NCBI GenBank assembly: GCA_029891345.1
Contig: CM056994.1
Coordinates: 227,780,991 to 227,844,990 of the forward strand
Source of the DNA: Dryococelus australis
Taxonomy: Eukaryota; Arthropoda; Insecta; Phasmatodea; Phasmatidae
Length of the DNA: 64,000 bases
Reading direction: 5' to 3'
Shown here: piece after piece, positions 8,416-46,184 of the stretch
Numbering within the stretch: position 1 is the stretch's first letter
Layout of the letters: each line of letters starts with the position of its first letter
Translations under genes and position numbers: made by a program
Notes under the pieces: model-generated
The model's input: only the letters and a program-made list of their open reading frames with translations
Told to the model about the DNA's origin: nothing
Databases searched by the model: none

Positions 8416-8475
8416 TGGCTGCCATTTTGTATCCGTTTACTATATAAGAAGGGAATAAATTAATATTTTCTCAGT
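8416..8475 (+). promoter_or_regulatory. promoter of cassette copy 1 (gene A)
   Basis: A GGCTGCCATTTTG motif (8418-8430) is followed by a TATA box TATATAA (8441-8447) and a TCAGT initiator (8471-8475), 30 bp from TATA start to initiator start. The same three elements in the same order occur at 39,638-39,689. That repetition is the main evidence that this is a real promoter. Confidence 0.7.
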
Positions 8476-8554
8476 GTTAAGTCAACAGCTACTGAAGTCA
8501 CATTGTGTACATGAGTGTGCATTGCAATAGACGCCTACAGTACTGCAATCTATG

Positions 8555-8806
8555 CTAGGCATCCACACACCAAAAGTTATGCTAAGCGTCCACAGCACCC
8601 AAAACGATGCCAGGCGTCCACAGTACCGAGAGTTTCGCCAGGCGTCAACACCACCGAGAGCTACGCCAAGCATCCACAACATCCAAAACAATGCCAGGTG
8701 TCCACAGTACCGAGAGTTTCGCCAGGTGTCCACACCACCGAGAGCTATGCCAAGTGTCCACAATACTAAGAGCTACGTCAAGCGTCGACAGCATCGAGAG
8801 TTGAGC
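8555..8806 (+). repeat. 28-bp tandem repeat in gene A leader, 9 units
   Basis: Units begin at about 8555, 8582, 8611, 8639, 8667, 8695, 8723, 8751 and 8779, nearly all 28 bp, with consensus CAGGCGTCCACAGTACCGAG followed by AGYTACGC. Units of two kinds alternate into an 84-bp (3 x 28) higher order. As 28 is not a multiple of three, a translated array cycles through all frames, and all three plus frames stay open for a while. It lies between the initiator and the gene A start codon. Confidence 0.9.
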
Positions 8807-8864
8807 CGCAAAAATCTGCAGGGATTACTTCTCTCTGCGACAACATCATCTCGCAACAGGTATA

Positions 8865-9272
8865 ATGCACGAAGGCCACTGCTGCGATAACTGTGATCAG
8901 GAGTGTGTAAAAGTATTCTATGTGATTCTAGCTTACGGATGAACGAAATCGTTGTTGAGTTAGACTGTTCTCAGTTGTGGGTGCTGCCTAACGATTTCAT
9001 GATCACTTTTTCATCCCACGAAACAAAATTAGTCTCCATTACTTCCTGAACATTTAAGAGCAGACGAGGATACTGTGTCTTAGCTTCCTCGTGAAGACTG
9101 CCCATTCGTCATGCCCGCTTTCGTTAACGATGTCAACGAACAACATATGCGGCGGGATTACATGTCGTGAAGGTTGGAACAGCTAATAGAAGCTAGGATC
9201 ATTCCCAATTTACCAATGGATGATTCCGGGGTTGACGAAGTGGATTCCGAGGAGTCCACCGAGATCTTGTAA
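8865..9272 (+). pseudogene. cassette gene A, copy 1 (unknown protein)
   Basis: Unknown family, recognised only by matching a second copy at 39,995-40,378. The start is the ATG giving MHEGHCCDNC; copy 2 begins MHNGHCCDYC. The shared HCCDxC cluster suggests a small metal-binding motif. Mid-protein, a stretch reading LPNDFMITFSSHE matches a decayed WPKEFIISFAPHE in copy 2. The C-terminal part carries LRADEDTVS, then CP, FVNDVNEQHMRRD, DDSGVDEVDS and ESTEIL before the TAA. Several stops and shifts break the frame, for example a TGA before EHLRADED. It sits downstream of a TATA/initiator promoter and a 28-bp repeat leader, and 75 bp upstream of gene B. Function unknown; the conservation indicates former coding. 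Confidence 0.6.
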
Positions 9273-9346
9273 AAAAAAAAAAATTGTAGACTTTCTGTAC
9301 ATACTATACAACTTGAAGTTTATAGTGTAAAATAAATAAAGTCATA

Positions 9347-9811
9347 ATGAAGTGCTACGTGCAAGGATTTGAAAATTACCAAGACAAATATTTTGTAATT
9401 AAAGAACTTGCCATTTCATATGCGAATGATTATAATAATAGTAAAGTATTAAATCTCCCATGCCTTGGTTTGTTTTAAATCCAGAAGTCAAAATGATGTT
9501 TCGACATCAGTCTTACGAAGTCCATAATTTCAAATGCGACTCTGGTGATAGAGCTTATGAAGAACGTTTCCAGTATGCGAATCGAAGACTATCCCGTATA
9601 CGTGCTTGGAAAAAAGCAGAAGGAAATTTTAAAAAGTTTAACCAATACAGAAGTCATAAACATTAGAAGATATCACGACTGTTCAAGCATTAATTCGATA
9701 ATAAAATGCTATAACACTAATCACTGTGGGAAAAAATGGTTTGTTCACAATGCAAAAGTGAAACTTTAAGAGAGTATATATAATGTGTATCAGCATCCTA
9801 CCTATATGTAA
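9347..9811 (+). pseudogene. cassette gene B, copy 1 (unknown protein)
   Basis: Starts MKCYVQGFENYQDKYFVIKE and ends YQHPTYM at the TAA. Copy 2 (40,722-43,992) starts MRLVQGLKNHHDKSFTVKEI and ends YQHPSYV, so both ends are homologous. Shared internal blocks are a KVLxxxP segment, MMFxHQxYEVHxxK, RFQY, DYPVYVLGKxQKE, LTNxEVxNxRRYxxC and a CSQCKSExLREY zinc-ribbon-like tail. The reading frame changes at least three times, so the gene is dead. The pattern VQG...F..KE near the N terminus followed by VYVLGxxxKExxK recalls a repetitive arthropod protein family with an exonuclease-like look, but that is an unverified impression. An AAATAAATAAAG run lies directly before the ATG. Confidence 0.6.
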
Positions 9812-9870
9812 ATATAATAATTAAAAAAAAATTGTTTGTTACGGGTTCATACCCGTGTAAGCCTTTGAAA

Positions 9871-12050
9871 ATGGAGACATTCAGCCCAGAACAGGTGTAC
9901 AAGAGTGTGGTGTGCGGATACAAGAGAGCGTGGTTCAAGTATAAAGCCAATATGTTCTTCCAATTATAAATGTGCAACAAAAATGAACACTGGAACTGTT
10001 CACAAAGTTTCGCAGGAAATACCCGTGGGAAGCCACAAATTAATTTGATATACAAGCAATGTGTATAAAAAAAATATCAAACAGCTATGAGTTCAGTATC
10101 AGTAAAGGTAAAATCAGCAAAAATATAAAACTGCTAAACATTTATTAAAATAAATGCACAAATGAGCTGGTTCTATTGCAAATCCTTAACACTGAAATAT
10201 AACAGCCTTATCCTAAAATGTCGTTACCAATTTACGTGACACAAGGTGCCTCACTAACCAATAGCACGCAAATATAAATGTTTGAAAAATTAAATATTCA
10301 CATGAAATATGAAGTGAAATATTAAAGTTGAAGATAAAAGACTACAAATCGCAGTCCTTCAAACAAATACCCTAATAACACTGTATATAAAATATTAGAA
10401 AACTCACAACCTAACCCCGTCACGTCCTGATGTATATTCATTAACAACAACGTATAATTACTTTCTGTAGCTGTACACAATTCATTTGAAAACCACAAAA
10501 ATACCGCCGCAGAGTGATTAAAATATTGGGACTCCTAGAGTACACATTTGCCTTAATCTCGATGGCACAACAAAGTGCCACTTGCAGACGGTCAGTAAAC
10601 ACAGCCCTCGGTTAACCTAGGTAAGTTTATTTCTCAGAACCAGAGGCACCTTGCCAAAACAAAACCTCGGAATTACTTGTTACACAACAGCTGTTAAAGA
10701 TTTTCTGTATCCACAATAACACTCTTAGAATGCAAACGAGCTTACTAAACAGTTTGATAAATTCGTTACAAACCCTTAAGCTCGTTTGATGATAATTGAT
10801 TCCTACCCTGATTTAACATTTTAAACGAGCCAGTCCACACATCGACTGCATTTCTCGTGTTTGGAAAACTCTTTATTTGGAATATCAATATCCTTAGACC
10901 TGGCACATTTCACATTACCCATTACTTCATACAGCGGGGCAACATTTACTCCCATATCAGCCCGCTGAGATGAAGATACATATAAAAATTTAATAAAAGG
11001 CTATAAATTTATAAATTGGCTGATCAGCGGCAGAGGCACCCGAACAAAGTGACCAGTCATAAAATTGTTTCATACACACAGTTTAAAGGATTGGCCGGCA
11101 TTGTTGATAGTGAGCATAACCAACACTGAAAGCAAGCAGATAATGGGGCGGCATTGAAACTACAAATCTCCAGGAAAAAATTACATTTCTCAAATAATAA
11201 CAACAGCCGCCAATTTAATTCCAAACCAAATTTAGATCATGCATGCAGAATATGGATTTTACAAAAGAAACAGCACACACACAAAATTACTTTGCACTTC
11301 CATTACAACACCGAAAAAAGACATGCCCAATCAAATAAAGGCTTTTGGCCACAACTCACCAGTTTTCTAATTACATGCCGCACCTTCCGAATAATATTTA
11401 AATATACACTACTCATATCACTAAAGTAGTAGCCCTTACGCATTACTACAATATTAAGGTGAAAGAATTACTCGTCGCACATTTTATAGCTGAAAGATCC
11501 TCGCAGAATGTGAATTCAAGTGCCGATCGGTGAGCCAGTTGACGAGCATTAGGAAGGCAGGTAAAATTGTAGGGAAATTATTCTGAGGTTTGACACCTTG
11601 AAGAGCTAGTATTCAATTAAAAATGCAGCGTTCAGGGAGAAAGGAAGCAAACAGAGGGAGGGCTAGGAGAAAGGATAGGGGCTACCGAGCGACACCAAGA
11701 TCGCAAGAACTGTGATGCACCTAACAGCGGCAAACAGTACTATCGGCGGCGGCCAATTCAAAGGCCGGCGCATACATGTAAAGAACGAGTATTGTGTTAT
11801 GAGAAAGATGGTTTCTCGATTTTTAATATGCGACCCGACAGCGAACTTCCCTTTTTTTTCTGGGGAACTGTGATTTAAAACTGTAAGTGACGAAATAACC
11901 AAAGCACCATGACTTAAACAAATTAAATATAAATTAAGTAGAGAGCTTTACGAAGAAGAAACATGCAATAACAAGGGACACATAACGCAAATTAAAGGAA
12001 GTAGTCGCCTTCAAAGATCGCCTTGTGGAATATGAAAATGCGAAGTATAG
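9871..12050 (+). pseudogene. cassette gene C, copy 1, split by insertion
   Basis: The N-terminal part (9871 to about 10,020) reads METFSPEQVYKSVVCGYKRA, then MCNKNEHW after a TAA, matching C1, C2 and C3 of the second copy. The C-terminal part resumes near 11,787 with CYEKDGFSIFNMRPDSELP and continues to ETCNNKGHITQI and SPCGI, ending at the TAG at 12,048-12,050. The matching C1 sequence at 44,110-44,648 has no equivalent of the 1.75 kb between, so it is an insertion, or less likely an intron unique to this copy. Further frameshifts occur after DSELP. Function unknown; the family has conserved Cys and His residues (CN..EH, ETC, SPCG). Confidence 0.6.
10022..11785. other. insertion inside gene C copy 1, unclassified
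   Basis: Defined by comparison with the uninterrupted C genes at 44.1-45.7 kb. No transposase, terminal repeat or target duplication was found by eye. The AG of TGTAAAG just before the resumption, and a GTGGG just after the break, leave an intron possible. The content is AT-rich with no convincing gene. A 91-codon frame at 11,154-11,429 is unremarkable. Confidence 0.45.
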
Positions 12051-12600
12051 TGTGACGATTCATTGGTCGTCACCTAGTAAAATGTAATGGTTTTAGTATT
12101 TTGCACCACAGTCGGTAGCGCTGCGTATTTACAGTTTTTATGTGTTTTTATATTTGGTTATATGTCGACCGGTACATTTATTCTCATTGCCATCTATTAA
12201 TCAAGTATGTATTTTATTGCACATAGTTTTTACGGCAAAATTATTCTTATTGTTTACTGTTGATCTATTATTAATTATACTGCACGTATTTTTTATTAGT
12301 GTTGTGTATGATATTTGTAATCGATATTATTTGTGCAAATCGATTTGTAAAGAGTCGCGACCGTGGTACTTGGGGTGTGGGGAGACCGCGACGTCATCTG
12401 GCTGAGACAGCGCGCCCTACCCAGTGTGTGTGTGTCCGCCGCGGTGTTTGGATCGGTCGCAAGGAGTGTGCGCTCGACTGCGGAGCGAGAGAGTATCGGG
12501 AAGTCGGGCGGACGTTAAGCAGTATCGGACTGCTATGTAATTTTTCCCTAGTTGCGATCTGCAGTGTGTTACCCGAGCAAGTGAACGTCACCGTAACATT
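12051..12600 (+). repeat. possible LTR (TGTGACG...CGTAACA)
   Basis: Directly after the gene C stop codon the sequence begins TGTGACGATTC and, about 550 bp on, reads CGTCACCGTAACA. These are short inverted ends of LTR type, with a GC-rich 3' half and no coding motif. A gag-like frame lies 1.4 kb downstream. No partner LTR was found in the window, so this may be a solo or truncated copy. Confidence 0.35.
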
Positions 12601-17465: not shown

Positions 17466-17944
17466 ACTTTTTTGGAATTTTTTGGGGGAAAGGCGATTTT
17501 GGGGTAAAAGGACCAATTTTTAAGTAATTTTTGAAGAAAAAAGATACTTGTGTTGATAACATGGCCGCCCCAGGCTGTCGAGCGCAACTCCCTTCGATCA
17601 CGTTTACCTAGATGGCAGAAACCGTCATTTGTTTTGAAGTTCGCATCAGAAACAGCTGACGAGGGGCAGGGTAAGTTTAGAGGATGTTTACTGTACACAA
17701 GTGAAAGTAGTTTACCTCAATAAAAATTATAAATTTATGCATTGCATATGGATGTACACAAATATTTGAAAAGGAAGCAACGTTTCCTTTCACACGTAAG
17801 TAGATTTGTATGAAAAAGTTGTATATTATTTATCTCGTTTAAGTCCGTTTTATGATAAATGGTGTTGAGGTCTAGAAAATGGTGTTATTTTAAACAACTG
17901 TAAAGTGATAATAGTGGTTTCACTTCACCTAATTCGAAATGTAT

Positions 17945-18462
17945 GATAAAATAAATATAAAAAAACTTTCAAAGCCAACCTTTTATTTCTAAATGCACTA
18001 AAAAGAGAAAAATAATTATAATAGTTACACAATTTGTAGAACTTGTAAGATGTGGTCGAACAGCCGTAATAAACTTTACTACGAATTAATATGTTTGTAT
18101 CAATTTTAATTTAGTATATAAAAGCTTGGCGCAATGAGGAACGAATACCTCATTTGTGTAAGCTTAGTATGCACATATCTTGCCCAAGGCTCTTAACTAT
18201 TCACAATATAGAACATATATTACATTTTCGTAAGCATAGGAAGAACATATCGTGCGTAAGGCTCTTGACAATTCGCGCCAATATTTTATATACTAAATAT
18301 AACTTGATACAAACATATTAGTTTCTAGTAAGGTTTATTACGACTGTTCAACCACATCTTGCAAGTTCTACAAATTGTGTAAATATTATAATTATTTTTC
18401 TCTTTTTAGTGCATTTATAAATAAAATGTTAGTTTTAAAAGTTTTTTTATATTTATTTAATT
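17945..18462. repeat. fold-back element, ~175-bp arms
   Basis: The left arm (17,947-18,127) and right arm (18,285-18,460) are reverse complements over most of their length. Examples are TTGTAGAACTTGTAAGATGT against ACATCTTGCAAGTTCTACAA, and AATATGTTTGTATCA against TGATACAAACATATT. About 155 bp lie between. No coding capacity: a MITE-like or fold-back repeat. Confidence 0.8.
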
Positions 18463-18754
18463 TTTCCTTTTTTAGTCTCCAACCATATGCTTGTATCACG
18501 AATATGACTTTCCCTTGCTAAGAAAGATCCCCATAATGTATCGTGATCGACCAGTAGTTCACTTTCATTCCGATACGTGACATACTGTAGCAGCAAACTA
18601 TAATAATAGTTTTCAGAACCATTTGCCGCTACAAAAAAAAGGCGCGTGCACAACAGCATTGACACTTCTAATCTCTATTTTACTGTTACTCTATTCTGTA
18701 AAACAAACTCGATACGACATTTACTGCATGTAGTTTTAGAGTTCCTATGGCCAC

Positions 18755-23689: not shown

Positions 23690-23990
23690 AGTGCCGATCG
23701 TGGAGCACCCCTTATTTTCATAGAAATATCAAGGTTTTTTTATCCAAAATCAAGGTCTTTGAGACTAAATTTTGGCTCTAAATTTTTTTTAAAAGGAACC
23801 CTCAAAATCAAGCCATTTTCCTCGAATTCGTGTCAATTTAAGCCAAAATCAAGCAAATATTCAATTTTTTTTATCGTCGTGCAAGATTTGTGCCAATTAA
23901 CCAAAAACATGAACATTTCCCACTTTTGATGCAATTTTTCACGTTTTCTAGAAAAGTTAATTTTGTGAGTGAGCAATCTAAATCAAGAAA
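23690..23990 (+). repeat. Polinton left terminal inverted repeat
   Basis: Starts AGTGCCGATCGTGG. It pairs with 35,755-36,050 through blocks such as TTTTCCTCGAA, GATTTGTGCCAATTAA and TTTTGTGAGTGAGCAATCTA. Confidence 0.9.
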
Positions 23991-24830: not shown

Positions 24831-24909
24831 TTAAGCACTTTTCGAGTTTTTCAAATATCGTTATTTTATAATTTCTTTATAAAGTTTTATTTCTTATAAA
24901 TAAATAATT

Positions 24910-30300: not shown

Positions 30301-30778
30301 AACTAATCGTCAATTTTTAGTATTTTAAATTTTTATATTATTATTTATGGCTTTTTTACACTTCAATCACTAATTATTCTCCATTTAATAAGCATAGAAA
30401 AATAATTAATACTTAAATTTTTCGAATATTCCTATTACAGTCATCACACCATCATCATATTCAGATATTTCAGTTTTTTAATTTTAAATTTTAAAATATC
30501 GCTTATGTTAACATGAAAAGTCTTATTTGAATAATTTTTATAAATCCATCAATAACAGTCGCAGTACCATCAGGTAAATTGGGATTAACAGTAATTATTT
30601 TATAAACATTACAATACATCACAAAAGTAAAGAAAATTTTATTAATATCTTAGTGAAAAATATTATTACTTTATTCCACTTTGCAGGTAAATAAAATATA
30701 TGAGATTTTTTTTCCTTACATTTTTCAATTTTCAAGTTGACAAGTGTATCATAATAGTTCAAAACTGGTTTTTAAATT

Positions 30779-31132
30779 TTACCATTTAACTGCTATTTCT
30801 TCTTCTAAATATATTTTATTGGCCGCACCTTTTCCATCTACAGGATCAGCCATATTATTAATTATACGATTTTGAATAAAAACATAATCTGTTGTATAAA
30901 CAAAAACTTTACTAAGTTGATCTCACAAAGCAGAAAAAATAGTATTGTATTTTGAATCTACATATTTTTAAAAATGAGAAACACTAGTATTGTATCTTCA
31001 TTCTACATATTTTTTTTAAAGCATAGTCAGAAACAATGGTTTTATATTTCGAATCTACATCAATTTTTAGTGCCTGCTTTGCATTATTTATTTGTTTTAT
31101 ATAATCAGAAATAGTATTACTGAATTGTATAT

Positions 31133-31177
<45 letters not shown>

Positions 31178-31462
31178 CTTTTGGAGCATAATTAGCTATT
31201 TGTTTAATAAGAAATTTTTAATTAACTGTGTCTTTATCGTCTCTAGGATCATCTATATTAACAATTCTATGCCCTAAAAAAGAAACATAAGATTTCGTTT
31301 AATCAAAGTCAGTGCTTAGTTTACTTTGTAAATCAGACACACCCGAATTGCATTGTGAATCGACACATGTTTTTAAAGTGTAATCAGAAGCAATAAATTT
31401 GTATTTTAAATCAATATCTTTTTTTAAAGCATACGAAATAGTGTCAAAAATTTATTTAAAAT
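30779..31462 (-). pseudogene. Polinton tail-fibre-like protein
   Basis: Two repeats on the minus strand carry the signature of phage and virus fibre proteins. RIVNIDDPRDDKDTVN, then KFLIKQI (31,195-31,275) is the first; RIINNMADPVDGKGAANKIY followed by LEEEI (30,787-30,862) is the second. The known fibre repeat is RI.NVADP...DAVNK.YV. Before each repeat come heptad-like segments (VDSKYNTIFSAL, VDSQCNSGVSDLQSKL, DIDLKYKFIASDYTLK), repeated at least four times, which would form a trimeric shaft. An (AT)n expansion at 31,120-31,170 and stops break the gene. It lies between integrase and protease on the same strand. A receptor-binding fibre is the natural reading, by inference. Confidence 0.6.
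31118..31174. repeat. (AT)n microsatellite
   Basis: About 50 bp of alternating AT inside the fibre-like gene of the Polinton. Confidence 0.95.
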
Positions 31463-31965
31463 TTTGATTGGTGGTTTTCGAATTATAACTGAATAAAAAT
31501 TCAGAATTCGACCATCATTTTAATAAACATTTCTGTTTTTGAAATAATTAATTTAATTATTAGGAATATTACCTCCAAATGAATCGAAATAGTAAAACTT
31601 GTTATTTTCTTTAAAATAACAAAAAGAATGAGTTCCCTGATTTTTGAAATATCAAAATTAAGCACAGCACATTCATTTTTGTGCATACTTTTTTGTAATT
31701 CATCAATCATGTAAACATTTCTGAAAGTTTTTATATTTAATATTTTTACATATTTTTCAATGTGGATATTAGATAGTAGGTATATATTCACTTTTCTTTG
31801 TCTTCCCTTCTCTTTTGCAACTGCACCATTTCCTGCTTTATTTTATGTTGCAAAATTGTGTCTCTGTTGTTCTTCTAATTCTTTTTTACTTTTTCTAGTT
31901 TGTTCAACAGAATTGTAAATTGCACTAACTCCTCCAGCTAAGGTGCCAAGTGTACCTAAAGCAGC
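31460..31965 (-). pseudogene. Polinton adenovirus-like cysteine protease
   Basis: The N-terminal part is a small Gly/Ala-rich segment LLAALGTLGTLAGGVSAIYN and a charged helix KKELEEQQRHN, then a TAA. The protease domain begins YLLSNIHIEKYVKI and FRNVYMIDELQ, then KNECAVLNFD. After a frameshift it reads GTHSFCYFKENNKFYYFDSF with the catalytic histidine of the GTHW-type motif. The family motifs are LSN.DI..Y, KNECGI.N.D and GTHW..Y...YFDSFG. The C-terminal catalytic cysteine region is decayed. In the family this enzyme matures the capsid proteins. A Tc1 fragment adjoins its 5' side. Confidence 0.8.
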
Positions 31966-31974
31966 AAGTAGACT

Positions 31975-32305
31975 ATCTATCAAAAAGTAATTGGGAACCT
32001 GTCCACAATGTTTGCTTGGTGGTAGTCACCCCATTAGAATCTCGTAGAGCCACCTCTTGCAGCTATATCAGCAGCCACCCTGTCTGGCTTGCTCTCTACA
32101 AGTGTTTGCTGGACATCCCCGGAGATTCGTCGCCATTCCTCTTGCAACAATTCCATGAGTTGAGGAATGGATTTTGGCCGCGCCTGAAGAGTCCTCACCT
32201 GGTGATCCAGTTCGTCCCAAAGATGTTCTATAGGGTTGAGGTCGGAGCTCTAGGCGGGGCAGTCCAATCAGCGAACATCCATGAGGTAAACAACTTCCAG
32301 ATTTT
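31975..32305 (-). mobile_element. Tc1-like transposase 3' fragment inserted in the Polinton
   Basis: The minus strand reads SSDLNPIEHLWDELDHQVRT, the Tc1 motif SPDLNPIEHLWDEL that holds the final catalytic acidic residue. It then reads SIPQLMELLQEEWRRI and ESKPDRVAADIAARGGSTRF, the usual C terminus. Base composition is about 50% GC against the AT-rich Polinton around it. Only the last third of the gene is present, so it is a truncated insertion. Confidence 0.85.
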
Positions 32306-32759
32306 TTTTGACCATCTTTTTGACTATTGGTAGTAATAAAGTTAATTTGAAACTTTTACCTTCTTTTATTTTTATTTTTTTCCTCTCAATTTGATCATTT
32401 GTTAAAAAAAAATTATATACCCAAATCTTTAAATTTCTTAAAGGGAATATCGAAAGTTATATTTGTTATCTTCATTTATAAGTAAAAATATATATATAAT
32501 CAATAAAACATGTTAATTCCCCAACATATTTTTTTTTGTAAACATAGTTGAGGAAACAGCAGCAGATGCAATTTTTTCTCCAATTTGAGTGTTTTTATTT
32601 AACATTATTTATTTATTTTGCTCCTCTTTGTACAATTTTAACAGCATTATGTCTAGATTATAAATCTTTATGGCCTCTATCTATATGCAATATCGTAATA
32701 TTTGCATGCTTCGTTTTATTTATTTATTCCTGTTTCGCCTCCTTCCAATCTTTTATATA

Positions 32760-33870
32760 ACTTTGTAAATGGACTCAATAATTAAAACCAGGCAAATGCA
32801 TTTCGGGTAGCATTAAATTGTTTAATTCCTAATTTATGATACCTTTGCTAGGGGTTCAGAACTCCAAAACTAATGTGGAATTACATTTGAAACTCTTAGT
32901 ATATATGGAATTCCTTTCGGATTATTTATAACAAAATCAGAAAAATTATTGTTCAGCATATTTATTATGTTTGCTTTTTTATTGCAATAATTTTTATTTC
33001 CAGCATTTTAGTCACCATGAATAACTAATAATCTATGAACCAATTTTCTAACATCATCCATCCAAACATATTATTTTGGTAAATTTTTGTATTTTTTTAT
33101 ACCTTCTCCAGATCTAGGATTTCTTGGAGAAATCTTTTTTCTGGTGTGTTTGATGCAGTTCTTGAATGTGATACTTTTATATAGTTATTATAAATTTGTC
33201 CAATTATCTTTCTATATTTCCAATTTATATTCAAGTTTATTTTATTTCTTGGATTATATTCTTGGAATGCAACATCGGTATCTAAAACTATTTTCGTGTA
33301 GTTATCATAGTCGGTAGCAGTGAAATTAACCTTATGATATTATTTTTTATCTTTTGTTGGCAAATTAGAAAGTCCTTCTGTTAATTCACATTCTTTATTT
33401 TTAACTGATATTTAATTAACATTTATCTTTACTTGTGTATTACCAATGTAGAAATGTTGTCCTTCTACACGTAAACCATATTGAGTATCAATAACATTTA
33501 TTCTTTTTTAAACTTCTTAACCAAGATTTATAGTAGAATCAGACGTGGTTCTTTTTATGGGTAGAATGCCCATTCGCTCTTCCAAATTAGGAGATTTCTG
33601 TTCTGAGAATAATTATCTTTCAAATGACTTTTCTTCTGGCATTGGTGGAAAATCTAAATTTTTTGGTATTACAGGAACTAGTGTTGTTATTAAATTATTA
33701 TTTTCTTCACTTACTTTTTCTACTTTTTTTACCAATATTTCATCATTCATAGATTAATGGTTGCTCTTTCTTCCTATGTTTTTCATATTCTTTTTCATGA
33801 CAATTTACATATTTTTTTATATCTTTCAATAAGTATTTAACTCGTGAAACCTCCTTTGATTCCATCATTT
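32760..33870 (-). pseudogene. Polinton virion-associated protein
   Basis: On the minus strand, NEILVKKVEKVSEENNN and a proline-rich segment precede a stop. Then come DTQYGLRVEGQHFYIGNT and TEGLSNLPT, followed by NFTATDYDNYTKIVLDTDVA and NWKYRKIIGQI. Many Polintons contain a protein with the order YGI....MIGN, GT.GLWEL.., Y...DY..Y..IL..T.A, and the correspondence is good. Its role is not firmly known; an internal virion protein is usually proposed. Stops are frequent. The region 32,310-32,760 next to it, also minus, is too decayed to assign. Confidence 0.55.
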
Positions 33871-33893
33871 ATACATTAATTTTTTTCTCATAA

Positions 33894-35234
33894 ATGAGTT
33901 GTAAAAGTATTGAGAGTTTCAAGAGACAAATTTTTCATCCAACTGATCAAACTAGGGAGAATTAAAATGTTTACAATAATAGAATCGAATTGTATAATCC
34001 TATAGCTGATGGCTTTTCTTTTCCAAATTAGGCTTATATTTATGAGCAATTTAGTTTACTAAAGGGAGATCAGGTTGGAGCTGACGCAATTATGTTTAAT
34101 CAGATAATATAGATGTTTGTTCTAATTGCTTTCCTTTTCAGTTTCCTAGAGTAGAAATTTCAAAACATGGAAATATTATTGAAGCTATTGATACTTCAGG
34201 TATAACATCAACAATCATGAATCCTTTAGTGAGATCACCAAGTGAACAAAATTATTTATAATTTAATGGTGTTGATAATCTATATCGAAATAAATCAGTT
34301 TCTAGCAATATAACAAAAGAGGTTAAAAAGTGTTTCTAGTAATAAAACAAATTTAATATTGTATCTGCTGAGATATATGTTTGGTTTTATTCGTGATAAC
34401 AATGATGTTTATTGGAAAGTGGTTACATATTTTTTTTTTTTTTCGGAATTCATCTGGAAACAACTATTTTTTCTTTATGAAACTTTAAATAAAATGATAA
34501 CATTACGAAATATCGTCCTGATCTTGGTAAAATTGATATTAAAAAATTAGAAATTATGTGGCCTATTGTTGAATATGAATCTAACACTGCCATTGCAATT
34601 AAAGAAAAAATATACAAAGATCCAAAAATACCTATTAGTATTGATTATTGGCATTTAAAAAAAAAAAAAAGAAGTCCCTGCTAAAACAACTGTTTTTAAC
34701 TTTGATATAAAATATCAGTTGAATATTTTAAAATTTAAAATGCCCGATTTTGTAATATTGTAGGTTTTCAACTTAATAGAATAAATCGTGCTGAACAGTA
34801 TAAACATGCTACTATGTTTGATCATTGTAATGTGAGAAATATTCATGTTAAAAATGGTAGAAATGAAATTTTTTCTAAAGAAAACTGGAATCTGAACATT
34901 AAAGTTGGTGTTTGTCTTAAACAATTTCTTGCTTATAATGATTTTAGAAATTCAAAAACCAAGCTCGATACAAACTATAGAAAATGAACTTTATTATAAC
35001 TCAACTGTAAACTTTGATGGTGATACTTATTATTCATTTTGGGGTCGAAGACCATTACATGTCATAGATTGCATGTATAGAAAAACTACAGTAGCTAAAG
35101 AAAAAACAAATATAAAAATTAGTGTTGATTTTAATGATGAGGTTGAAGCAGGTGACATTTGTAATGTTGTTTTAATTATTAAACGAACTCATTCTTATGA
35201 TTATTTGAAAAAAAGAATTACTAAATATTTATAA
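33894..35234 (+). pseudogene. Polinton major capsid protein
   Basis: The plus strand begins MSCKSIESFKRQIFHP, then YNNRIELYNPIADGF. The middle holds the GDQVGAD and ISKHGNIIEAIDTSG segments. Near 34,750 it reads FCNIVGFQLNRINRAEQYK, then MFDHCNVRNIHVKNGRNEIF. The end reads YYSFWGRRPLHVIDCMYRKT, then IKISVDFNDEVEAGDICNVV and LIIKRTHSYDY. The FxxGFQ.NR, FDHC.VRN and P.HVIDCSRQ patterns are those of the Polinton double-jelly-roll capsid protein. Stops and shifts abound in the first two thirds; the last 109 codons are open. Confidence 0.75.
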
Positions 35235-35394
35235 TTTTTTATATTAATAAATGGAAGAATAAACAAAATGTTTCGAAATTTTAATACAATATTTTAGACT
35301 TATAGTTGGGTGTTTACATTAAAAAAATTTACGAATGTCTATAAATATAGATTAACTATTTGATCAAATAAAAAATCATAATTCTAAATGAGTT

Positions 35395-35661
35395 TTATCT
35401 TTCTCTTAATAAATTGCTTTTCTTTATAAATAAATCAGATTCATTATTTGCATTGTAACCAAATTCATCATAACCAGATACATAATCTGCAATTGGAAAT
35501 CCCTCGTACTCGTAATCTGCAATTGGAAATCCCTCGTACTCGTGATCTGCCACTAGAAATTCCTCGTAATCTGAATCATCTTCGTATTCTCCATTTAGAA
35601 ATACAATGTAATTCTCTTAATCATAACCAGATTCGTTATCTGTGTCTGAAAATCCATTCAT
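35395..35661 (-). pseudogene. acidic repeat protein near Polinton right end
   Basis: An 88-codon minus-strand frame from ATG (MNGFSDTDNESGYD, one TAG-type stop position, then ENYIVFLNGEYEDD) contains three units of YEYEGFPIAD/HEYEGFPIAD encoded by a 34-bp-scale tandem repeat at 35,495-35,565. It is strongly acidic and tyrosine-rich and ends LLRER. I do not know the family. It lies between the capsid gene and the right TIR, in opposite orientation to the capsid gene. Similar acidic tails can bind DNA or mimic it, but nothing here proves a role. Confidence 0.45.
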
Positions 35662-35754
35662 TTTGAATTTTTTAGTATGATTATTTATAAGATATAAATT
35701 TTATAAAGAAAAAATATTTTTTTGGATCTGTCGACAAGCTCAATTTGAAACGAT

Positions 35755-36050
35755 TTTCATAAGATTTAGATTGCTCACTCACAAAATTAGTATTTCTAGA
35801 AAATTTGAAAAATTGCTTGAAAAGTGAGAAATTCGAATGTTTTTTGCTTAAGTTTTGATGTTTTTTTAATTGGCACAAATCCTGCACTATAATTTCCAAA
35901 AAATTGACAATTTACTTGGTTTTGGCTTAAATTTACATGATTTTCGAGGAAAATTGCTTGTTTTTCAAAGCTCCTTTAAGATTTTTAGAGCTTAAATTTA
36001 GCCCCAGAAACCTTTATTTTGGAGCGAAAAACCTATATATTTCGATCACT
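35755..36050 (-). repeat. Polinton right terminal inverted repeat
   Basis: Ends CGATCACT on the plus strand, so AGTGATCG inward. It pairs with the left TIR over its whole length with point differences and small gaps. Confidence 0.9.
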
Positions 36051-37812: not shown

Positions 37813-38002
37813 GGCCGCAGCTGGTCAGGGGCTAGAACACCCAATAGTGGGTCCGCAGTAGCCCAGTGGCTGTAGCACCCCATAGTGGGGCCGCAGTAGC
37901 TCAGTGTCTAGAGCACCCAATAGGCGGGCCGCAGTATCTCAGTGGCTAGAGCACCCAAAAACGGGGCCGCAGTAGGTCAGTGGTTATAGAACCCAATACA
38001 AA
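37813..38002 (+). repeat. 38-bp array with tRNA-like A box, 5 units
   Basis: Five units of 38 bp follow the consensus GGCCGCAGTAGCTCAGTGGC, then TAGAGCACCCAATAGTGG. Each contains AGTAGCTCAGTGGCTAGAGC, which matches a polymerase III A box and the D-arm of a tRNA. No B box or acceptor partner follows, so these are repeated heads of a tRNA-derived sequence and not tRNA genes. Confidence 0.85.
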
Positions 38003-39635: not shown

Positions 39636-39689
39636 ACCGCCATTTTGGATCTTATCACTATATAAGGAAGAAATAGGTTTTTTCTCAGT
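39636..39689 (+). promoter_or_regulatory. promoter of cassette copy 2 (gene A)
   Basis: CGCCATTTTG (39,639-39,648), TATATAAG (39,659-39,666) and TCAGT initiator (39,685-39,689), 26 bp from TATA to initiator. Same order and similar spacing as at 8416-8475. Confidence 0.7.
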
Positions 39690-39854
39690 CTAAGTTTACA
39701 ATTCAACAAGGTTATATGTAACTCATCGTATTCCATTACAATCTCTGCTTCATAATCTCTACTCTTTGTGTGCATCACCGAGAGCAACATTACAATGGTG
39801 TCGTAATTGCATTATCGAGATAATCAACATTCACAGAAGACCTATTATCGCCGC

Positions 39855-39945
39855 TATCAACAGAAGCGAAAACCATCACTGCTATCAACCCACCACTACT
39901 ATCAACCCACCATGGCTACCAACCCAGCACTGCTATCAACAAGAG
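39855..39945 (+). repeat. short tandem repeat in gene A leader, copy 2
   Basis: Degenerate units of about 18-21 bp around CACTGCTATCAACCCACCA repeat four times between the initiator and the gene A start codon. They take the place held by the 28-bp array in copy 1, though the sequence differs. Confidence 0.65.
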
Positions 39946-39994: not shown

Positions 39995-40378
39995 ATGCAT
40001 AATGGCCACTGTTGCGACTATTGTACGAATAATGCAGTAATGCGTATAATGTGATACTAGCATTCGGACGTTCAAAAACACTGTTAAGCCTGGACATCCA
40101 CTCATAATAATGGCCTAAGGAATTTATAATTTCATTTGCTCCGCACGAAAGAGCTGTCGGAAGAGCTAAGGGCTGATGAAGACATAGTTTCCTATTTACT
40201 GTGTCAAGAGTGTCCTTATGGTCCACTAGGCTTTATCAATGATGTCAACCAGGAACACTTCAGGAGAGACAGTGTTATGCGCAGAATGCAGCAAGTAATA
40301 CAACTCATTAACAAAACACCTCCAAACACGGTCACTGACTCCGGAATTGACTCGAAGGCATCGACCGAAAATTTATAA
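39995..40378 (+). pseudogene. cassette gene A, copy 2 (unknown protein)
   Basis: Starts MHNGHCCDYC, matching MHEGHCCDNC of copy 1. After several stops, the last 81 codons (from 40,136) are open and read LRADEDIVSYLLCQECPYG, then FINDVNQEHFRRD, a helix MRRMQQVIQLINKT, and TDSGIDSKASTENL. Shared with copy 1 are LRADEDxVS, CP, FxNDVNxxHxRRD, DSGxD and the ESTExL-like end. The short, Cys/His-bearing N terminus and the acidic, Ser-rich C terminus do not match any family I know. It lies 340 bp upstream of gene B on the same strand. The surviving open frame in the C-terminal half argues that it decayed recently or was under constraint. Confidence 0.6.
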
Positions 40379-41109
40379 AACATACAGAACCGTGTGTGTA
40401 GTAAGTGTTCTTCAACTAGACTTTGTAATGCACAGTATAAACTTATAGATGTAAAATATGGTTAGGAAAGTATTAAATTGTGTATTCTTCAGTGAGATGT
40501 TGTAATTATTCTGTTCTATAAAAGGTTTAAATTGATATGTTTATTTTAAAGGCTAGATATACTTTTGCATAACTTTATAAGTTAATGTTTAAAGCGATAC
40601 ACATTGAATAAAAGGACAAGGTGTTGCTATTTTGTATGAATAGGTCATCTAATGTTTAAATTGATATGCAAACCATATTATAATACACTATGTGTTTTAA
40701 AATGGATAAGTCATAACCATGATGCGTTTAGTGCAAGGACTTAAGAACCATCACGATAAGTCTTTTACTGTGAAAGAAATTGCTACATCGTATTCAAATG
40801 ACGATAACGACACTAAAGTCCTAAGCTTTAAACCACCTGATTGTGGTTTGTTTTAAGCCCTGTGGTGCAAATGATGTTTCAACATCAAACATACGAAGTA
40901 CATGACTTGAAATGGGATGCCGGTGTTTTATAAAATGAAGATAGGTTCTAACACCTAAATAATGTTTTCCTCGGGACTATCCCGTATATGTACTGGGAAA
41001 AACACAAAAGGAACATATGAAGACTTTAACTAACCCAGAAGTTGTAAATGTTAGAAGATACTACGAATGTCCAAATATTAATTCACTTGTACAACATTAT
41101 AATATCTAT

Positions 41110-43900
41110 CAGTGGCATCTCGTTAGGGCAAGCAAGGAAAAACAATGCTTGCCCAGACAGTTACCTGACAATGTTGTATTGAAAATAAATATTAAATTAT
41201 AACTTATATTTACTCTAAGGTAACTTTTCACTCATGTGGTACACATTCTACTCGGGAAACTATACTGTACATTATAAGAAAACAACTCGTTGGCTAGCAA
41301 AACCTAGATGTTTGAAAGCACTGTAAGCAATGCTTTCAGCAGGTAGGCGGTCACAATGGTTTCCCATCCGTCCGGCGGGGAGGGGGGCAGGGTAGGAAGA
41401 CCACCCTGGGAGGGCGGGGGCTTATGGCTTTGTCAGCCTGTGTTAGAAGCTACGATGGTAGTGCTTTCTTCACCGAACTGAAGCGGACATAGCCGAAGCT
41501 GGCCTAGCCGCAGGCAGTTGGCGTGGTGTTGTTTACAGTAACTATATCGATGCGTGGGCAAGTACGTGCGCACAACACAAATCGTATTGTTTTTATTTAA
41601 TTTAGTTTTGGTGCTGAGAATGTTACATATATTCGTGCGCGATGTATACGCTACATAAAAATGATAAAATTACTGTGTGAGACTGGGAACCGAGTAAATA
41701 TAATGAGTGCAACACAAACATGTGGATGTAAGTGTGGTGTGTGTGGATTACAAGTGAAGAATTTTTCCAGCAGTGCTTTCACGTTTCAGGAAAGATGTGA
41801 CATCACAAAAGAGGGTAGACCAACACCTGAACTTACGATCACGACAACACGCAAGAAAGGTAATTTTGTAAATCATTTCCAAAAAAAAAAAGTTTATCAG
41901 AAACAGTCGTGGTTAGCTGGATGTAACAGCCTAAACAAACAGTTTTGCTGGCCAGGTTTATTGTTTTCAAAGGATGTTAACACATCTGCTGCAACTGGGT
42001 ATTGTGACCTTAACAATCTGTGCATGCTGTTCAAAAACACGAGCGGTCTGAAGTTCACAAAAATTCTTTTTTGTCTCATCAAGAATTAGGTAAAAATGGA
42101 GTTGATTTTGGTCTAGATAGACCCAAATAATTAAGCACACAACAACGTAAGAATGTTAAAAGAAACAGAGAAATTTTGAACCGTTTAATAGATATTTGTT
42201 TCTTGGTTGTAGCGGAACTGCCTTTCCGTGGTCATGATGAGACAAAAGAATCAGAAAACCATGGCAATTATGTTGAGTTAATTGCTTTAATTGTATCATA
42301 TGTTCCAGTATTGTCGCAGCACTTTGAGATTTCCACAGTATTTTTTGGCCTCTCGTTCAATATCCAGAACGACCTGATAGAATACATTCAAAATATTGTG
42401 TTTGCTGAAATTAAAAATGAAATTGAATTGTTTCAATTTTACTTGGCGAGACGTCGGAGTGTGCCAAACTTACTCATTTGTTCACTGTTTTTGGATTTGT
42501 AACGAGTGATGGAGAGATCAATGAACGATTTAATGGCTTCACTAATGTTAGTTGTTATAGGTCGGCGGGAGCCATAGCAAGTCATGCAATTGAATTTGTT
42601 ACGACAACTAACTCTGACAGTAAACTTGTAGACACAATTTTGAAAATGTTTTCTCTGACATGCTAAAATTTGGCCTGGAACCAGAAAAAAACGTCGGAAA
42701 TTAAAAGATGAAGTAAACCCAAAGTGAGAGTATTCTAGGCTACACGCTGAAATATTAGACAACATCGTAACACAAATCGAAACACGTTTAGAAAACATTA
42801 ACAAATTAAGATTTTTAGAACTTGTAAATGCTACATAATTCCAGTTTTCTCATAGTTTTCCTGGGATCCAGTAGAAGTCCTTAATCGAATACTATGGCAG
42901 TTACTTTGACTTTGATAAGCTTCGGTCTGAACCAAAAGTTGTGTATAGTCGAGATGCCATGAAAACCAGAAGTGTTCAAAATTTTCTTAAATACATTCAT
43001 GAAAATTATTTACAAGATGCTCTCCTACAGTTCCATAACATGTACGTTAATGGCAACAATACAATGTACACCGTCCTCTGCGGAGAGTTCTTTTTCAACA
43101 CTAAAACGAATAAAGACATACTCACGGAACACAATTTGACAAAATAGACTCTCTGGTCTTGCACTTCTCTCCATTGAAAAGAAACTTGCCTTCGATTTTT
43201 ATGAAGGTGTCACGACGGAATTCGTGTACAAAAATTAGGGTTGTTCGTTGTTTCAAATCCCCTACGCCCTCTACAGTGTACAAACAACTCTAATACTTGT
43301 GAAGAGTGTATATTGCTTTGAGCGACGTGGTAGTGATTCAAACAGCTGGGATGTTGAGCATCGTAGGTGAGTTTGTAAAAATTTCCATAGAAATATTAAT
43401 TCAAATTTGCCATTTACTGTTTGTGCAATATACTTTTAAGTCAAAATATTCATTTGCTGTATATTAATTGTGACGTGAATGTTTACAGATATAATTATAA
43501 GTGTAATTTGTGCTCCTGCTCGTTCGACTGCTTTCCATCTTTACACAAACAAATAATAATTTTTCCTGTCTACAGTTCTGCACAAACAAAATTGCTCCGT
43601 GTGTAAATACCTCACTGTCAATGGGTATTAAAATTATATTGATTTTTAGTAGACAAGGTTTCGGGTTTGATGAAGGTATCTTTGTAATATTTTTCACTCG
43701 GGCAAATTTTTTGTAAAACAATATTAATATTTTTACAAGAGGTGTTTTTTATATTTAGGTACGAAATTTTTTTTTAATGGGACCATTTTGCACTTTGAAA
43801 TCCAAATTTTCCCGGGGGAGGACTCCCGGGGAGATCAACGCCATTACTGCCCCCTGCACACAGTAGCTTGCCCATGAAATTATAGCACTTATCGCCACTG
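41110..43900 (+). mobile_element. hAT transposon (ZMYM1-like), 2.79 kb
   Basis: Ends CAGTGGC and GCCACTG form the terminal inverted repeat, and a GGGCAAGC/GCTTGCCC pair lies just inside. The element is flanked by an 8-bp target duplication ATATCTAT/ATATCCAT with one mismatch, the hAT hallmark. It is inserted in cassette gene B. It carries one decayed transposase. Confidence 0.9.
41661..43242 (+). pseudogene. hAT transposase, TTF zinc finger / ZMYM1-like
   Basis: The N-terminal TTF-type finger appears as SWLAGCNSLNKQFCWPGLLF, then SKDVN and GYCDLNNL (family WL.GC...N.LFCWPCLLFS.....W...G..DLNNL). Next come NRLIDICFLVVAELPFRGHD and ETKESENHGNYVEL, as in ZMYM1-like proteins (L..AV..L..QGLAFRGH.E......GNF.EL). 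DGEINERFNGFTNVS lies in the catalytic region. The C-terminal dimerisation domain reads SAESSFSTLKRIKTYSRNTI, then RLSGLALLSIEKKLAFDF. Stops within the dimerisation helix and several shifts make it inactive. Confidence 0.85.
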
Positions 43901-44109
43901 ATATCCATCAATGTTCGAAGCAAATGTTTTGTTCACAGTGTAAAAGCGAAGCGTTAAGAGAATATATGTACCAACACCCATCGTACGTTTAACTGTATTA
44001 AAGTTTTTAAAAAGAATTACTTGTTACAACGTATAGTGAGAACGACAAACATTAGACATAAATAAAGGAGCACCCTGAGTGCATACGTCAATTTACTTAC
44101 ATCATTGAA

Positions 44110-44252
44110 ATGGAGAGATTTAATGCAGTAAGGACGTATAAGAGCGTAATGTGTGGATACAGGAAAGTATGGTTCCGACTGGACAACTATAGACCATGGA
44201 AAATCCAGCTCTGTAACAGGGAAGAACATTGTAATTTCTCAAAAATCAGTCC

Positions 44253-44312
<60 letters not shown>

Positions 44313-44648
44313 GAATGGGACTTGTGCGATGGAGACGACGGCCTTGTTTATAATATGCGACCTGATAGTGAGCTGCCATGTTCTTCAAACGAACTAAGGT
44401 TTATTACCAGAAGTGAAAAAATAACAAAGTATCCAGGGTATTAACCAATAAAGTACAAATTAAGAAGACACTTTTTTGACAGTCCTACAATGTGGACGGA
44501 AACATGCAATAATAAGGAACATGTCACTCAAATCCAAGGGGATAACTGACGTATAGTCTCGCCTTGTGGAATGTGGAAGTGCATAGTTTGGCTAAGCAAT
44601 GTGTGTGCCTGCAAATTCGACTTAACCGAGATGCCATTGAGTAATTAA
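44110..44648 (+). pseudogene. cassette gene C1 (unknown protein)
   Basis: The N terminus is MERFNAVRTYKSVMCGYRKV, then WFRLDNYRPWKIQLCNREEH, open to an (AT)n expansion at 44,255-44,308. Beyond it, in another frame, come EEWDLCDGDDG, NMRPDSELPCSSNEL, MWTETCNNKEHVTQIQGDN, a stop, SPCGMWKC and a TAA at 44,646-44,648. The stop codon abuts the CCAAT box of the C2 promoter. Shared with C2 and C3: GYRxVWF, a QxCNxxEH motif, a C..C cluster before RPDSELPC, ETC...EH and SPCGMWEC. Conserved Cys and His suggest metal binding or disulphides. I do not know the family. The dinucleotide expansion destroyed this copy. Confidence 0.65.
44255..44308. repeat. (AT)n microsatellite inside C1
   Basis: About 52 bp of alternating AT following the codons for SPEY. 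Confidence 0.95.
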
Positions 44649-44709
44649 CCAATGAGAAGCATTGACATATTAATGTTTATATAAAGAAAGGAACAGATGA
44701 CATGTCAGT
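44649..44709 (+). promoter_or_regulatory. promoter of gene C2
   Basis: CCAAT (44,649-44,653), TATATAAAG (44,678-44,686) and TCAGT initiator (44,705-44,709); TATA to initiator is 27 bp. A second TCAGT at 44,723 lies just before the start codon. Confidence 0.75.
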
Positions 44710-44731
44710 TTACATGCGTACGTCAGTTACG

Positions 44732-45181
44732 ATGGAGAGATTCGATCCGTTAGTCAAGTATGCTGGTGTAGCTCCGGGATACAGGAGAGTATGGTTTTAA
44801 GAACAGAATAATACTCCATTACAGATTCAAATGTGTAACAGGGAAGAGCATTGGCGTTTATTCTTCATTAGTCCAGCATATACTTTAAAAGTTTTGGATG
44901 TTTGTTATGGTCGACACTGTGCTTTGAATAATCTACATCCAGACAGTGAGTTGCCCTGCAGTGTGAACGAACTAGCATGTGAAACTCAAGCTAAACACAT
45001 CACGAAACGCGCGTCATTCCAGAGAATTAAGTACATAATGCAAAAGGACTGTTGCTCTATTCCTACAATGTAGAGCGAAAACTGTTACAATAATGAACAC
45101 GTTACTCATATAGATAACCAAAAATTAATGTCTCCCTGTGGGATGTGGGAATGCAAGGTTTTTCAAAGTAAGAACATCTAA
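44732..45181 (+). pseudogene. cassette gene C2 (unknown protein)
   Basis: One continuous frame of 149 codons with two internal stops (TAA after RRVWF, TAG after SIPTM) and no frameshift. It reads MERFDPLVKYAGVAPGYRRV, QIQMCNREEHWRLFFISPAY, DVCYGRHCALNNLHPDSELP, then CSVNELACETQAKHI and ENCYNNEHVTHI, ending SPCGMWECKVFQSKNI. The start is the ATG 22 bp after the initiator. The length of about 150 residues agrees with C3 (145) and with the coding parts of C1. The best-preserved member. A secreted or zinc-binding small protein are both possible; no signal peptide is evident, which favours an intracellular role. Confidence 0.65.
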
Positions 45182-45226
45182 TTTAAGTTACAGGAAAACG
45201 TATGTGGTGGTTTACCTACAAATTAG

Positions 45227-45294
45227 CCAATGGGAAACATTGACGTGTTAACCCATCCTATATATAGGAAGGTGTGAGATACTAAAGTGTCAGT
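45227..45294 (+). promoter_or_regulatory. promoter of gene C3
   Basis: CCAAT (45,227-45,231), TATATATAG (45,259-45,267) and TCAGT (45,290-45,294), 31 bp from TATA to initiator. The C3 start codon follows after one base, so the leader would be only a few nucleotides. Confidence 0.75.
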
Positions 45295-45295
45295 C

Positions 45296-45733
45296 ATGGT
45301 TAGTGTGTTTAATCCTACGGTTGCTTCCGAGATCCTGCAAGTAGGATGCAGGAGAGTAATATTTAAGCCATATGGTGGCCTAATACAAGTTCAAGTATGC
45401 AACAATATCGAACATTGGTGCTAAACCTTCTATACTAGTCTCAGCACCAGATTCGGTGAAGGCCTGGCATGCAATGATTGTGCTGTGGGGTATCTCCGTC
45501 CCGACAGTGAATTACCATGTACACTAGAAGACCTGATGATAGCTAGCCTTAGCGAAGAGATAGAAGAACAGGGCGATGGAGTAATCACCTATCAACTTAC
45601 CAGACCTAACCGTTGAATCACTATCTGCTGGAAGGAAACCTGCGATAGCGACATTCACAATTTTATTCTCGAACAAGGAAGTTTAGCATTTCGATCTATG
45701 TGCAACATATATGCATGTGAAGTAGCTAATTAA
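45296..45733 (+). pseudogene. cassette gene C3 (unknown protein)
   Basis: A single frame of 145 codons with two stops (TAA after EHWC, TGA after RPNR). It reads MVSVFNPTVASEILQVGCRR, QVQVCNNIEHWC, LACNDCAVGYLRPDSELPC, LMIASLSEEIEEQGDG and WKETCDSDIHN, and ends CNIYACEVAN. It shares order and Cys positions with C2 but is the most divergent of the three, so the duplications are old relative to the copy split. It is followed within 6 bp by gene D. Confidence 0.6.
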
Positions 45734-45738
45734 GAATA

Positions 45739-46184
45739 ATGTTCACACCGAATGGTAAATACTTGTTTACTGGACATGCTTTGTATTCTGTAAGGCATGA
45801 ACTACCATATACACATCTCACATATAAGGAAACGTGTTACTCAAATATTAATTTTAAATGTTCATATATGTTAAAATGTAATAAACCATGCATATTTGAA
45901 TTTACTTAAACTGAATGCATGCGTTCAAAATGTTCTGTAAACCAATGTAGACCATACCTGACAGAGAAAATATGTAATTTTAAAACTGAAGGCGAATATA
46001 TTGTGATAAGGTACTGTGGGTAAGACCAGAGTTTGAAACATATTATTTTATGCTTGTACACTATAATGAGTTTGGTTACTTATTAGTTACCGGGTGTGTC
46101 GTGTTTGAATGTTACATACATCGAGCTGTTAAATTAGGTAAATTAAAGTTTAAACCACAAACACTGTTCAGCTTAAAATTCTAG
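45739..46184 (+). pseudogene. cassette gene D, small cysteine-rich protein
   Basis: Starts MFTPNGKYLFTGHALYSVRH, 5 bp after the C3 stop, without a promoter of its own that I can see. The first 94 codons (one TAA after CIFEFT) are rich in cysteine: KETCYSNINFKCSYMLKC, NKPC, ECMRSKCSVNQC, then EKIC. A shift near 46,008 leads into VRPEFETYYFMLVHYNEFGY, then LLVTGCVVFECYIHRAVKLG and a TAG at 46,182-46,184. The second part is hydrophobic and Tyr/Val-rich. I do not recognise it. Copy 1 of the cassette is truncated before this position, so only one example exists here. Confidence 0.45.

What the first reader, a model, noticed from the sequence alone, without database searches (positions are those of the whole stretch)
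8416..46184. Two diverged copies of an unrecognised multi-gene cassette (A-B-C[-C-C-D])
8.4-12.05 kb and 39.6-46.2 kb share the promoter (GCCATTTT, TATA, TCAGT), gene A (MHxGHCCDxC start, FxNDVNxxHxRRD), gene B (VQGxxN start, YVLGKxQKE, YQHPxY end) and gene C (GYxRxWF, RPDSELP, SPCG). Homology is clear in the protein frames but the DNA has drifted, so selection on protein acted before decay. Gene order is collinear on the same strand. None of the proteins belongs to a family I can name. Compact spacing and one promoter per gene suggest an endogenous DNA virus or a multi-gene mobile element.
Basis: partly seen in the sequence, partly recalled or inferred. Interest (0 to 1): 0.88.

Follow-up and report, generated by a model that had tools for sequence, protein, structure and literature searches.

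The report
Fossil virus-like three-gene cassette, two copies
Two old, broken copies of the same small group of genes lie about 30,000 bases apart in what is probably an insect genome; they look like remains of an unidentified DNA virus or virus-like mobile element, but no relative could be found with the collections at hand.

Summary
With 20 cassette pieces searched against the window, 31 of 31 cross-matches (E≤0.01) fell in the same gene family on the + strand; the reversed-DNA control reached 0.049. Order A-B-C is collinear at 8.42-12.05 and 39.64-45.73 kb. Correction: "D" is a diverged C, so copy 2 is A-B-C-C-C. Between copies, 83% of synonymous but 22% of nonsynonymous sites differ, while in-frame stops imply only about 0.10 neutral changes per site since death: the copies diverged as living genes and died later. 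Gene A has a conserved 67-nt promoter and the last two C genes share another, each with TATA and TCAGT 26-31 nt on, as in early genes of arthropod DNA viruses and in insect genes; none was found for B, C1 or C2. The viral, prokaryotic, metagenomic, PDB, Pfam, PHROG and NCBIfam searches gave no relative. No eukaryotic genome could be searched (genome search: 18 calls, none answered). Best reading: early/accessory genes of an unidentified DNA virus or virus-like element (0.55); main rival, a dead host gene cluster.

The parts
8421..8487 (+). Promoter of gene A, copy 1: GCCATTTTG, TATATAAG, TCAGT
   Evidence: Conserved with 39639-39700: score 59, maximum of 200 shuffles 40; TATA...TCAGT match; longer pattern found only at these two sites
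8562..8800 (+). 28-bp tandem repeats in the leader between promoter and gene A, copy 1
   Evidence: Tandem Repeats Finder; leader not alignable with the copy-2 leader (score 31, shuffle maximum 41)
8865..9272 (+). Gene A, copy 1 (stops and frameshifts)
   Evidence: tblastn E 9e-15 to copy 2, collinear pieces
9347..9811 (+). Gene B, copy 1 (frameshifted middle and end)
   Evidence: Collinear pieces match copy 2; best E 2e-18
9871..10005 (+). Gene C, copy 1, first part
   Evidence: tblastn E 1e-10 to C2
10006..11764 (.). Unidentified insertion that splits gene C of copy 1 (limits approximate)
   Evidence: C matches stop at 10005 and resume at 11765; no inverted repeats found in 9850-12100
11765..12050 (+). 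Gene C, copy 1, second part
   Evidence: tblastn E 1e-16 to C2
39639..39700 (+). Promoter of gene A, copy 2
39873..39940 (+). 17-bp tandem repeats in the leader of gene A, copy 2
39995..40378 (+). Gene A, copy 2 (frameshifted); C-terminal DSGIDS
40722..41109 (+). Gene B, copy 2, first part
   Evidence: Matches B1 in three pieces
41110..43900 (+). hAT-like transposon (name recalled) inside gene B, copy 2; CAGTGGC/GCCACTG ends, 8-bp flanking repeat ATATCTAT/ATATCCAT
   Evidence: Ends read from the sequence; DUF4371 piece 42131-42499, E 1.9e-7, 31.6 bits against a cut-off of 32.1
43901..43992 (+). Gene B, copy 2, tail (FCSQCKSEALREYMYQHPSYV)
   Evidence: tblastn E 7e-6 with the B1 tail
44110..44597 (+). 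Gene C2, copy 2, with an (AT)27 microsatellite at 44256-44309
44643..44716 (+). Promoter of C3: CCAATGAGAAGCATTGAC, TATATAAAG, TCAGT
   Evidence: Aligned with 45221-45298: score 48, maximum of 200 shuffles 32
44732..45181 (+). Gene C3 (one frame, two internal stops)
45221..45295 (+). Promoter of C4; TCAGT ends one base before the ATG
45296..45733 (+).
   Evidence: 28% identity over 142 aa to C3, E 1e-10; stops

Best explanation
The two cassettes are fossil fragments of an unidentified nuclear DNA virus, or a virus-like multi-gene mobile element, of an arthropod; probably they are its early or accessory gene region. Shown: two collinear A-B-C cassettes, saturated silent divergence with conserved proteins, later decay, conserved TATA + TCAGT core promoters for A, C3 and C4, tandem amplification of gene C. 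Inferred: host RNA polymerase II would transcribe these genes directly from short promoters. A, with its own upstream GCCATTTTG element, would be a small Cys/His-rich regulatory protein. B would be a globular protein with a C-terminal cysteine cluster. C, Cys/His-rich and without an obvious hydrophobic N-terminus, would be an intracellular host-interaction protein multiplied in tandem, as such viral families often are (general knowledge). Either two virus lineages inserted near each other, or one long insert carried both cassettes.
For: Collinear order and strand, 31 of 31 cross-matches. pS 0.83 against pN 0.22 over 288 codons, codon-position differences 86/56/152, while stops imply only about 0.10 neutral change per site, so most divergence arose in living genes. 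TATAWA-N20-34-TCAGT: 11 rows in the window against 2.57 expected, 0 of 100 shuffles as high; 5 of the 11 rows are the four cassette promoters. The layout resembles early genes of WSSV, a large arthropod dsDNA virus (TATA, then (a/c)TCANT 20-30 nt on; PMC1550435, passages) and the arthropod initiator CAGT of AcMNPV early genes (PMC8789824, passages). C3 and C4 each read in one frame over about 145-150 codons, broken by stops only, so they need no intron; C stands in three tandem copies.
Against: No polymerase, capsid, helicase or integrase was found next to either copy (Pfam scan of 129 ORFs; low power: ORFs under 62 aa were left out and the Polinton-like pieces in the same scan gave nothing either). 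No relative in 5 scans of viral contigs or 3 protein searches. The promoter type is also that of ordinary insect genes (PMC1550435 says so of Drosophila). WSSV early starts lie 20-85 nt before the ATG: C3 fits, but the leader would be about 4 nt for C4 and about 390 and 310 nt for A. CAGT was at only 6% of all AcMNPV start sites in PMC8789824. The A and C promoters do not align with each other (scores 22-23, shuffle maxima 31-35). Outside the cassette promoters 6 TATA-TCAGT rows remain, against 2.57 expected for the whole window. Two copies within about 30 kb on one strand also fit tandem duplication of host genes.
Confidence: 0.55

Rival explanations
1. A host gene cluster (orphan, fast-evolving genes) that was tandemly duplicated long ago, stayed functional in both copies, and then decayed in this lineage.
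For: Same strand, same order, about 30 kb apart; core promoters of a normal insect type; gene C already amplified in tandem. No viral hallmark gene seen.
Against: All eight gene copies are broken, so a whole cluster would have been lost twice; saturated silent divergence requires a very old duplication kept working for long and then lost wholesale.
Confidence: 0.23
2. Accessory (cargo) genes of a known type of large transposable element, such as a Polinton/Maverick or a giant LTR element, whose core genes are lost or lie elsewhere.
For: A Polinton-like element with terminal inverted repeats lies between the two cassettes at about 23.81-35.96 kb, so the genome hosts such elements.
Against: That element is 24-30% G+C in 2-kb windows, the cassettes about 37-38%, and its ends do not enclose either cassette. 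No inverted repeats enclosing a cassette were seen (one search printed only the 5 longest of 38 pairs for 37-47 kb).
Confidence: 0.15
3. A segmental duplication of one already dead locus.
For: Two copies, same order and strand.
Against: Silent sites saturated, protein conserved, third codon positions carry 152 of 294 differences; expected divergence after death is only about 0.2 per site between copies.
Confidence: 0.02
4. Chance similarity between unrelated noncoding DNA.
For: All gene copies are broken.
Against: E-values down to 2e-18 between copies and 2e-31 between C2 and C3; 31 of 31 collinear matches; reversed control best 0.049.
Confidence: 0.01

Closest known systems
Early genes of arthropod nuclear dsDNA viruses (WSSV, baculoviruses)
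   Same: TATA box with a TCAGT-type initiator 26-31 nt downstream, small genes, an amplified gene family (PMC1550435 and PMC8789824 by passages)
   Different: No core gene of these viruses seen; none of the three protein families matches the libraries searched; only C3 has a leader of the length given for WSSV
Polinton/Maverick elements
   Same: Multi-gene mobile DNA of animals; one such element seems to lie in this window
   Different: No PolB, integrase or terminal repeats seen with the cassettes; different base composition
Endogenous viral elements found by homology surveys (e.g. the Hymenoptera survey PMC10259472, passages)
   Same: Broken virus-derived genes in arthropod chromosomes
   Different: That survey started from a viral protein database; genes without relatives there would not be seen

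Membership tests
Endogenous DNA virus | Homology of at least one gene to a known virus | tested here: inconclusive
   None found, but how many insect viruses these collections hold is unknown, so power is low
Endogenous DNA virus | Core replication or capsid gene in the same insert | tested here: inconclusive
   Pfam scan of 129 ORFs of 62 aa or more found none, but it also found nothing in the Polinton-like element
Endogenous DNA virus | Different insertion sites or copy numbers between related genomes | not testable with these tools
   The genome search did not complete in 18 calls
Endogenous DNA virus | Coding selection before insertion, neutral decay after | tested here: met
   (also compatible with a dead host gene cluster)
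Polinton/Maverick | PolB and retroviral-type integrase | tested here: inconclusive
   None near the cassettes; the same scan did not detect them in the Polinton-like element either
Polinton/Maverick | Terminal inverted repeats around the genes | tested here: not met
   Inverted-repeat scans show none enclosing a cassette (whole window, 40 nt or more, 16 nt or more, not all pairs printed)
Host gene cluster | Conserved orthologues at the same place in related species | not testable with these tools
   No eukaryotic genome could be searched
Arthropod Pol II TATA-initiator promoter | TATA box and TCAGT about 25-30 nt downstream, upstream of the gene | tested here: met
   Gene A in both copies, C3, C4: 26-31 nt; not found for B, C1, C2

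The most novel reading that the evidence does not exclude
The cassettes are the first traces of an unrecognised family of arthropod nuclear DNA virus, or of one segment of a multipartite one, with three orphan gene families and host-type early promoters, known only from fossils because searches for endogenous viruses start from known viral proteins.
Probability: 0.4. Interest if true: 0.8.

Novelty: new member of a known kind. Interest (0 to 1): 0.5.

Why it matters
If these are viral, three gene families with no relative in the searched libraries become probes for an unrecognised lineage of arthropod viruses. They would also show that fossils of viruses without known relatives can be recognised by collinear cassettes that are conserved in protein, saturated at silent sites and carry Pol II early-type promoters.

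Tried and rejected
Chance similarity and duplication of a dead locus were rejected by the E-values, the reversed control and the codon pattern. An internal duplication in gene C was rejected: 401 of 500 shuffles for C3 and 439 of 500 for C4 score as high as the real halves. Weak Pfam matches were not accepted: Mss4 to A2 only (E 0.003, below the cut-off; not seen for A1), Pox_G9-A16 to C4 (E 0.011), 2L_N_poxvirus (0.0034) and PEX6_vert_N (0.0056) to one ORF each among 129. Predicted structures are too poor to use: C, mean pLDDT 36.9; B, 46.0, with an uncorrected frameshifted middle. No fold search was run on them. The leaders of gene A do not align (score 31, shuffle maximum 41) nor do the A-B spacers (35 against 46); the end of B with the B-C spacer does slightly (42 against 38). 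A nuclease-like (DnaQ-type) fold for gene B was a lead from memory; one search gave no nuclease (one row, a dynein light chain, E 0.74), so it is dropped. The DSGIDS of A2 resembles a beta-TrCP degron (recalled); A1 has DSGVDE, so the motif is not conserved. GCCATTTTG resembles a YY1/Pho site (recalled; no call tests it; one search was a keyword listing).

Full report
What was checked. The finding claims two diverged copies of a multi-gene cassette at 8.4-12.05 kb and 39.6-46.2 kb. I cut 20 protein pieces out of both places, with stops read as X, and ran tblastn against the whole window (its printed list was cut in the middle, and the count below comes from a repeat inside). Between copies, gene A matches at E 9e-15, B at 2e-18 (collinear pieces) and C at 1e-16; C2 and C3 match at 2e-31. 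Leaving out self-matches, 31 of 31 matches with E≤0.01 lie in the same gene family on the + strand, and the best match of the same queries to the reversed window is 0.049. No further copy of A, B or C was found in the window at that threshold.

Corrections to the anatomy. The layout is therefore A-B-C in copy 1 and A-B-C-C-C in copy 2. Each of the eight gene copies is broken by stops, frameshifts or insertions. B2 is split by a hAT-like element at 41110-43900: CAGTGGC/GCCACTG ends and an 8-bp flanking repeat ATATCTAT/ATATCCAT read from the sequence, with a DUF4371 piece inside (E 1.9e-7, just under the curated cut-off). C1 is split by about 1.75 kb of unidentified DNA, and C2 carries an (AT)27 microsatellite.

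When did the copies diverge? Over 288 aligned codons of A, B and C (copy 1 against copy 2, C1 against C2), 83% of synonymous sites but 22% of nonsynonymous sites differ; differences by codon position are 86/56/152. The blocks were chosen by protein similarity, which favours low nonsynonymous values; codons with stops and one short block of 8 codons (the C1c-C2c row) were left out of the total. Homology itself rests and not on this ratio. In 1059 codons of all eight gene copies there are 15 in-frame stops (A1 4, A2 0, B1 0, B2 0, C1 5, C2 2, C3 2, C4 2), which implies about 0.10 neutral substitutions per site since death. The blocks follow the open frame, and two stops of A2 fell just outside a block, so this is a low estimate. 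Even doubled for two copies it falls far short of saturated silent sites. The genes diverged as functional, selected genes and decayed afterwards. This contradicts duplication of a dead locus.

Promoters. Upstream of gene A a 67-nt block is conserved: GCCATTTTG, TATATAAG, TCAGT (score 59, best of 200 shuffles 40). C3 and C4 share another block with CCAATGRGAARCATTGAC, a TATA box and TCAGT (score 48, best of 200 shuffles 32). The A block does not align with the C3 and C4 blocks (23 and 22, shuffle maxima 35 and 31). From TATA to TCAGT is 26-31 nt. The pattern TATAWA-N20-34-TCAGT occurs in 11 rows in the window against 2.57 expected, with 0 of 100 shuffles as high; 5 of the 11 rows are the four cassette promoters and 6 lie elsewhere. 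No such promoter was found for B, C1 or C2, so 'one promoter per gene' is only partly right. WSSV early genes have TATA followed 20-30 nt on by (a/c)TCANT, 20-85 nt before the start codon, like Drosophila core promoters (PMC1550435, passages read). AcMNPV early genes use the arthropod initiator CAGT, although CAGT stood at only 6% of all start sites in that data set (PMC8789824, passages read). C3 fits the WSSV spacing. C4 does not, since its TCAGT ends one base before the ATG. Gene A does not either: its leader is about 390 and 310 nt, with tandem repeats in both copies and no alignable sequence.

Relatives. None were found: three searches of 5.8 billion predicted proteins, five scans of viral contigs (27, 29, 30, 69, 103), one scan of prokaryote genomes with gene B only (85), PDB sequences (nine rows in all, best E 0.18), Pfam (weak rows only, apart from DUF4371 of the transposon), PHROGs (E 0.12 and 0.19 only) and NCBIfam. 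The protein and contig collections are described as genomes, metagenomes, viral and prokaryote contigs; no eukaryotic genome collection is among them, so absence here does not mean that the genes are new. The genome search did not complete in 18 calls. Structure predictions were too poor to use. The nine paper searches that ran were keyword searches of which I saw listings; no listed title or abstract start describes these genes, which is weak evidence. A survey of endogenous viruses in 124 Hymenoptera assemblies searched by homology to a viral protein database (PMC10259472, passages), a method that would miss genes without known relatives.

Interpretation. The best reading is a fossil of the early or accessory gene region of an unidentified nuclear DNA virus or virus-like mobile element of an arthropod (0.55). 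The arthropod host is itself inferred from the promoter type and the transposons; no call names the organism. The translations show no obvious hydrophobic N-terminus (read by eye), so an intracellular role is likely. A is Cys/His-rich; B has a C-terminal cysteine cluster; C is Cys/His-rich and amplified. A role in host interaction is inference. The strongest rival is an ancient tandem duplicate of a host orphan gene cluster that later died (0.23): same strand, same order and close spacing fit it as well. Cargo of a Polinton or other large transposon is less likely (0.15), since no inverted repeats enclosing a cassette were seen and the Polinton-like element in the window differs in base composition. 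The three hypotheses can be told apart by the distribution of the cassette across related genomes, which could not be tested here.

Noticed in passing
23811-35959: A Polinton/Maverick-like element of about 12 kb, 24-30% G+C, with inverted repeats at its ends (AGCCATTTTCCTCGA... / ...TCGAGGAAAATTGCTT), a PolB-like YQDTDS motif at 26958-27374 (+) and an integrase-like ORF at 29575-29958 (-). Name and motifs are recalled; Pfam gave no PolB or integrase match to these pieces, and no matching 6-bp flanking repeat is visible.
   Followed up: partly
50094-55129 (-) and 57781-62175 (+): Two diverged retroelement pol-like stretches (28-76% protein identity by piece) in opposite orientation, a large imperfect inverted pair (name recalled).
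   Followed up: no
46329-48479 (-): Gypsy-like reverse transcriptase/integrase remnant directly downstream of copy 2 (name recalled).
   Followed up: no
8562-8800 and 39873-39940: Tandem repeats of different unit (28 bp and 17 bp) at the same relative place, the leader of gene A, in both copies.
   Followed up: partly
37813-37998: 38-bp minisatellite whose unit resembles a tRNA A-box (GTAGCTCAGTGGCTAGAGC), possibly SINE-derived (resemblance recalled, ARAGORN found no tRNA).
   Followed up: no
517-738 and 2148-2369: 222-nt inverted repeats (79%) around 1.4 kb with a mariner-like ORF at 1039-1419 (-) (name recalled).
   Followed up: no
17937-18132 and 18275-18470: 196-nt inverted repeat (88%) with 142 nt between the arms, a foldback element.
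   Followed up: no
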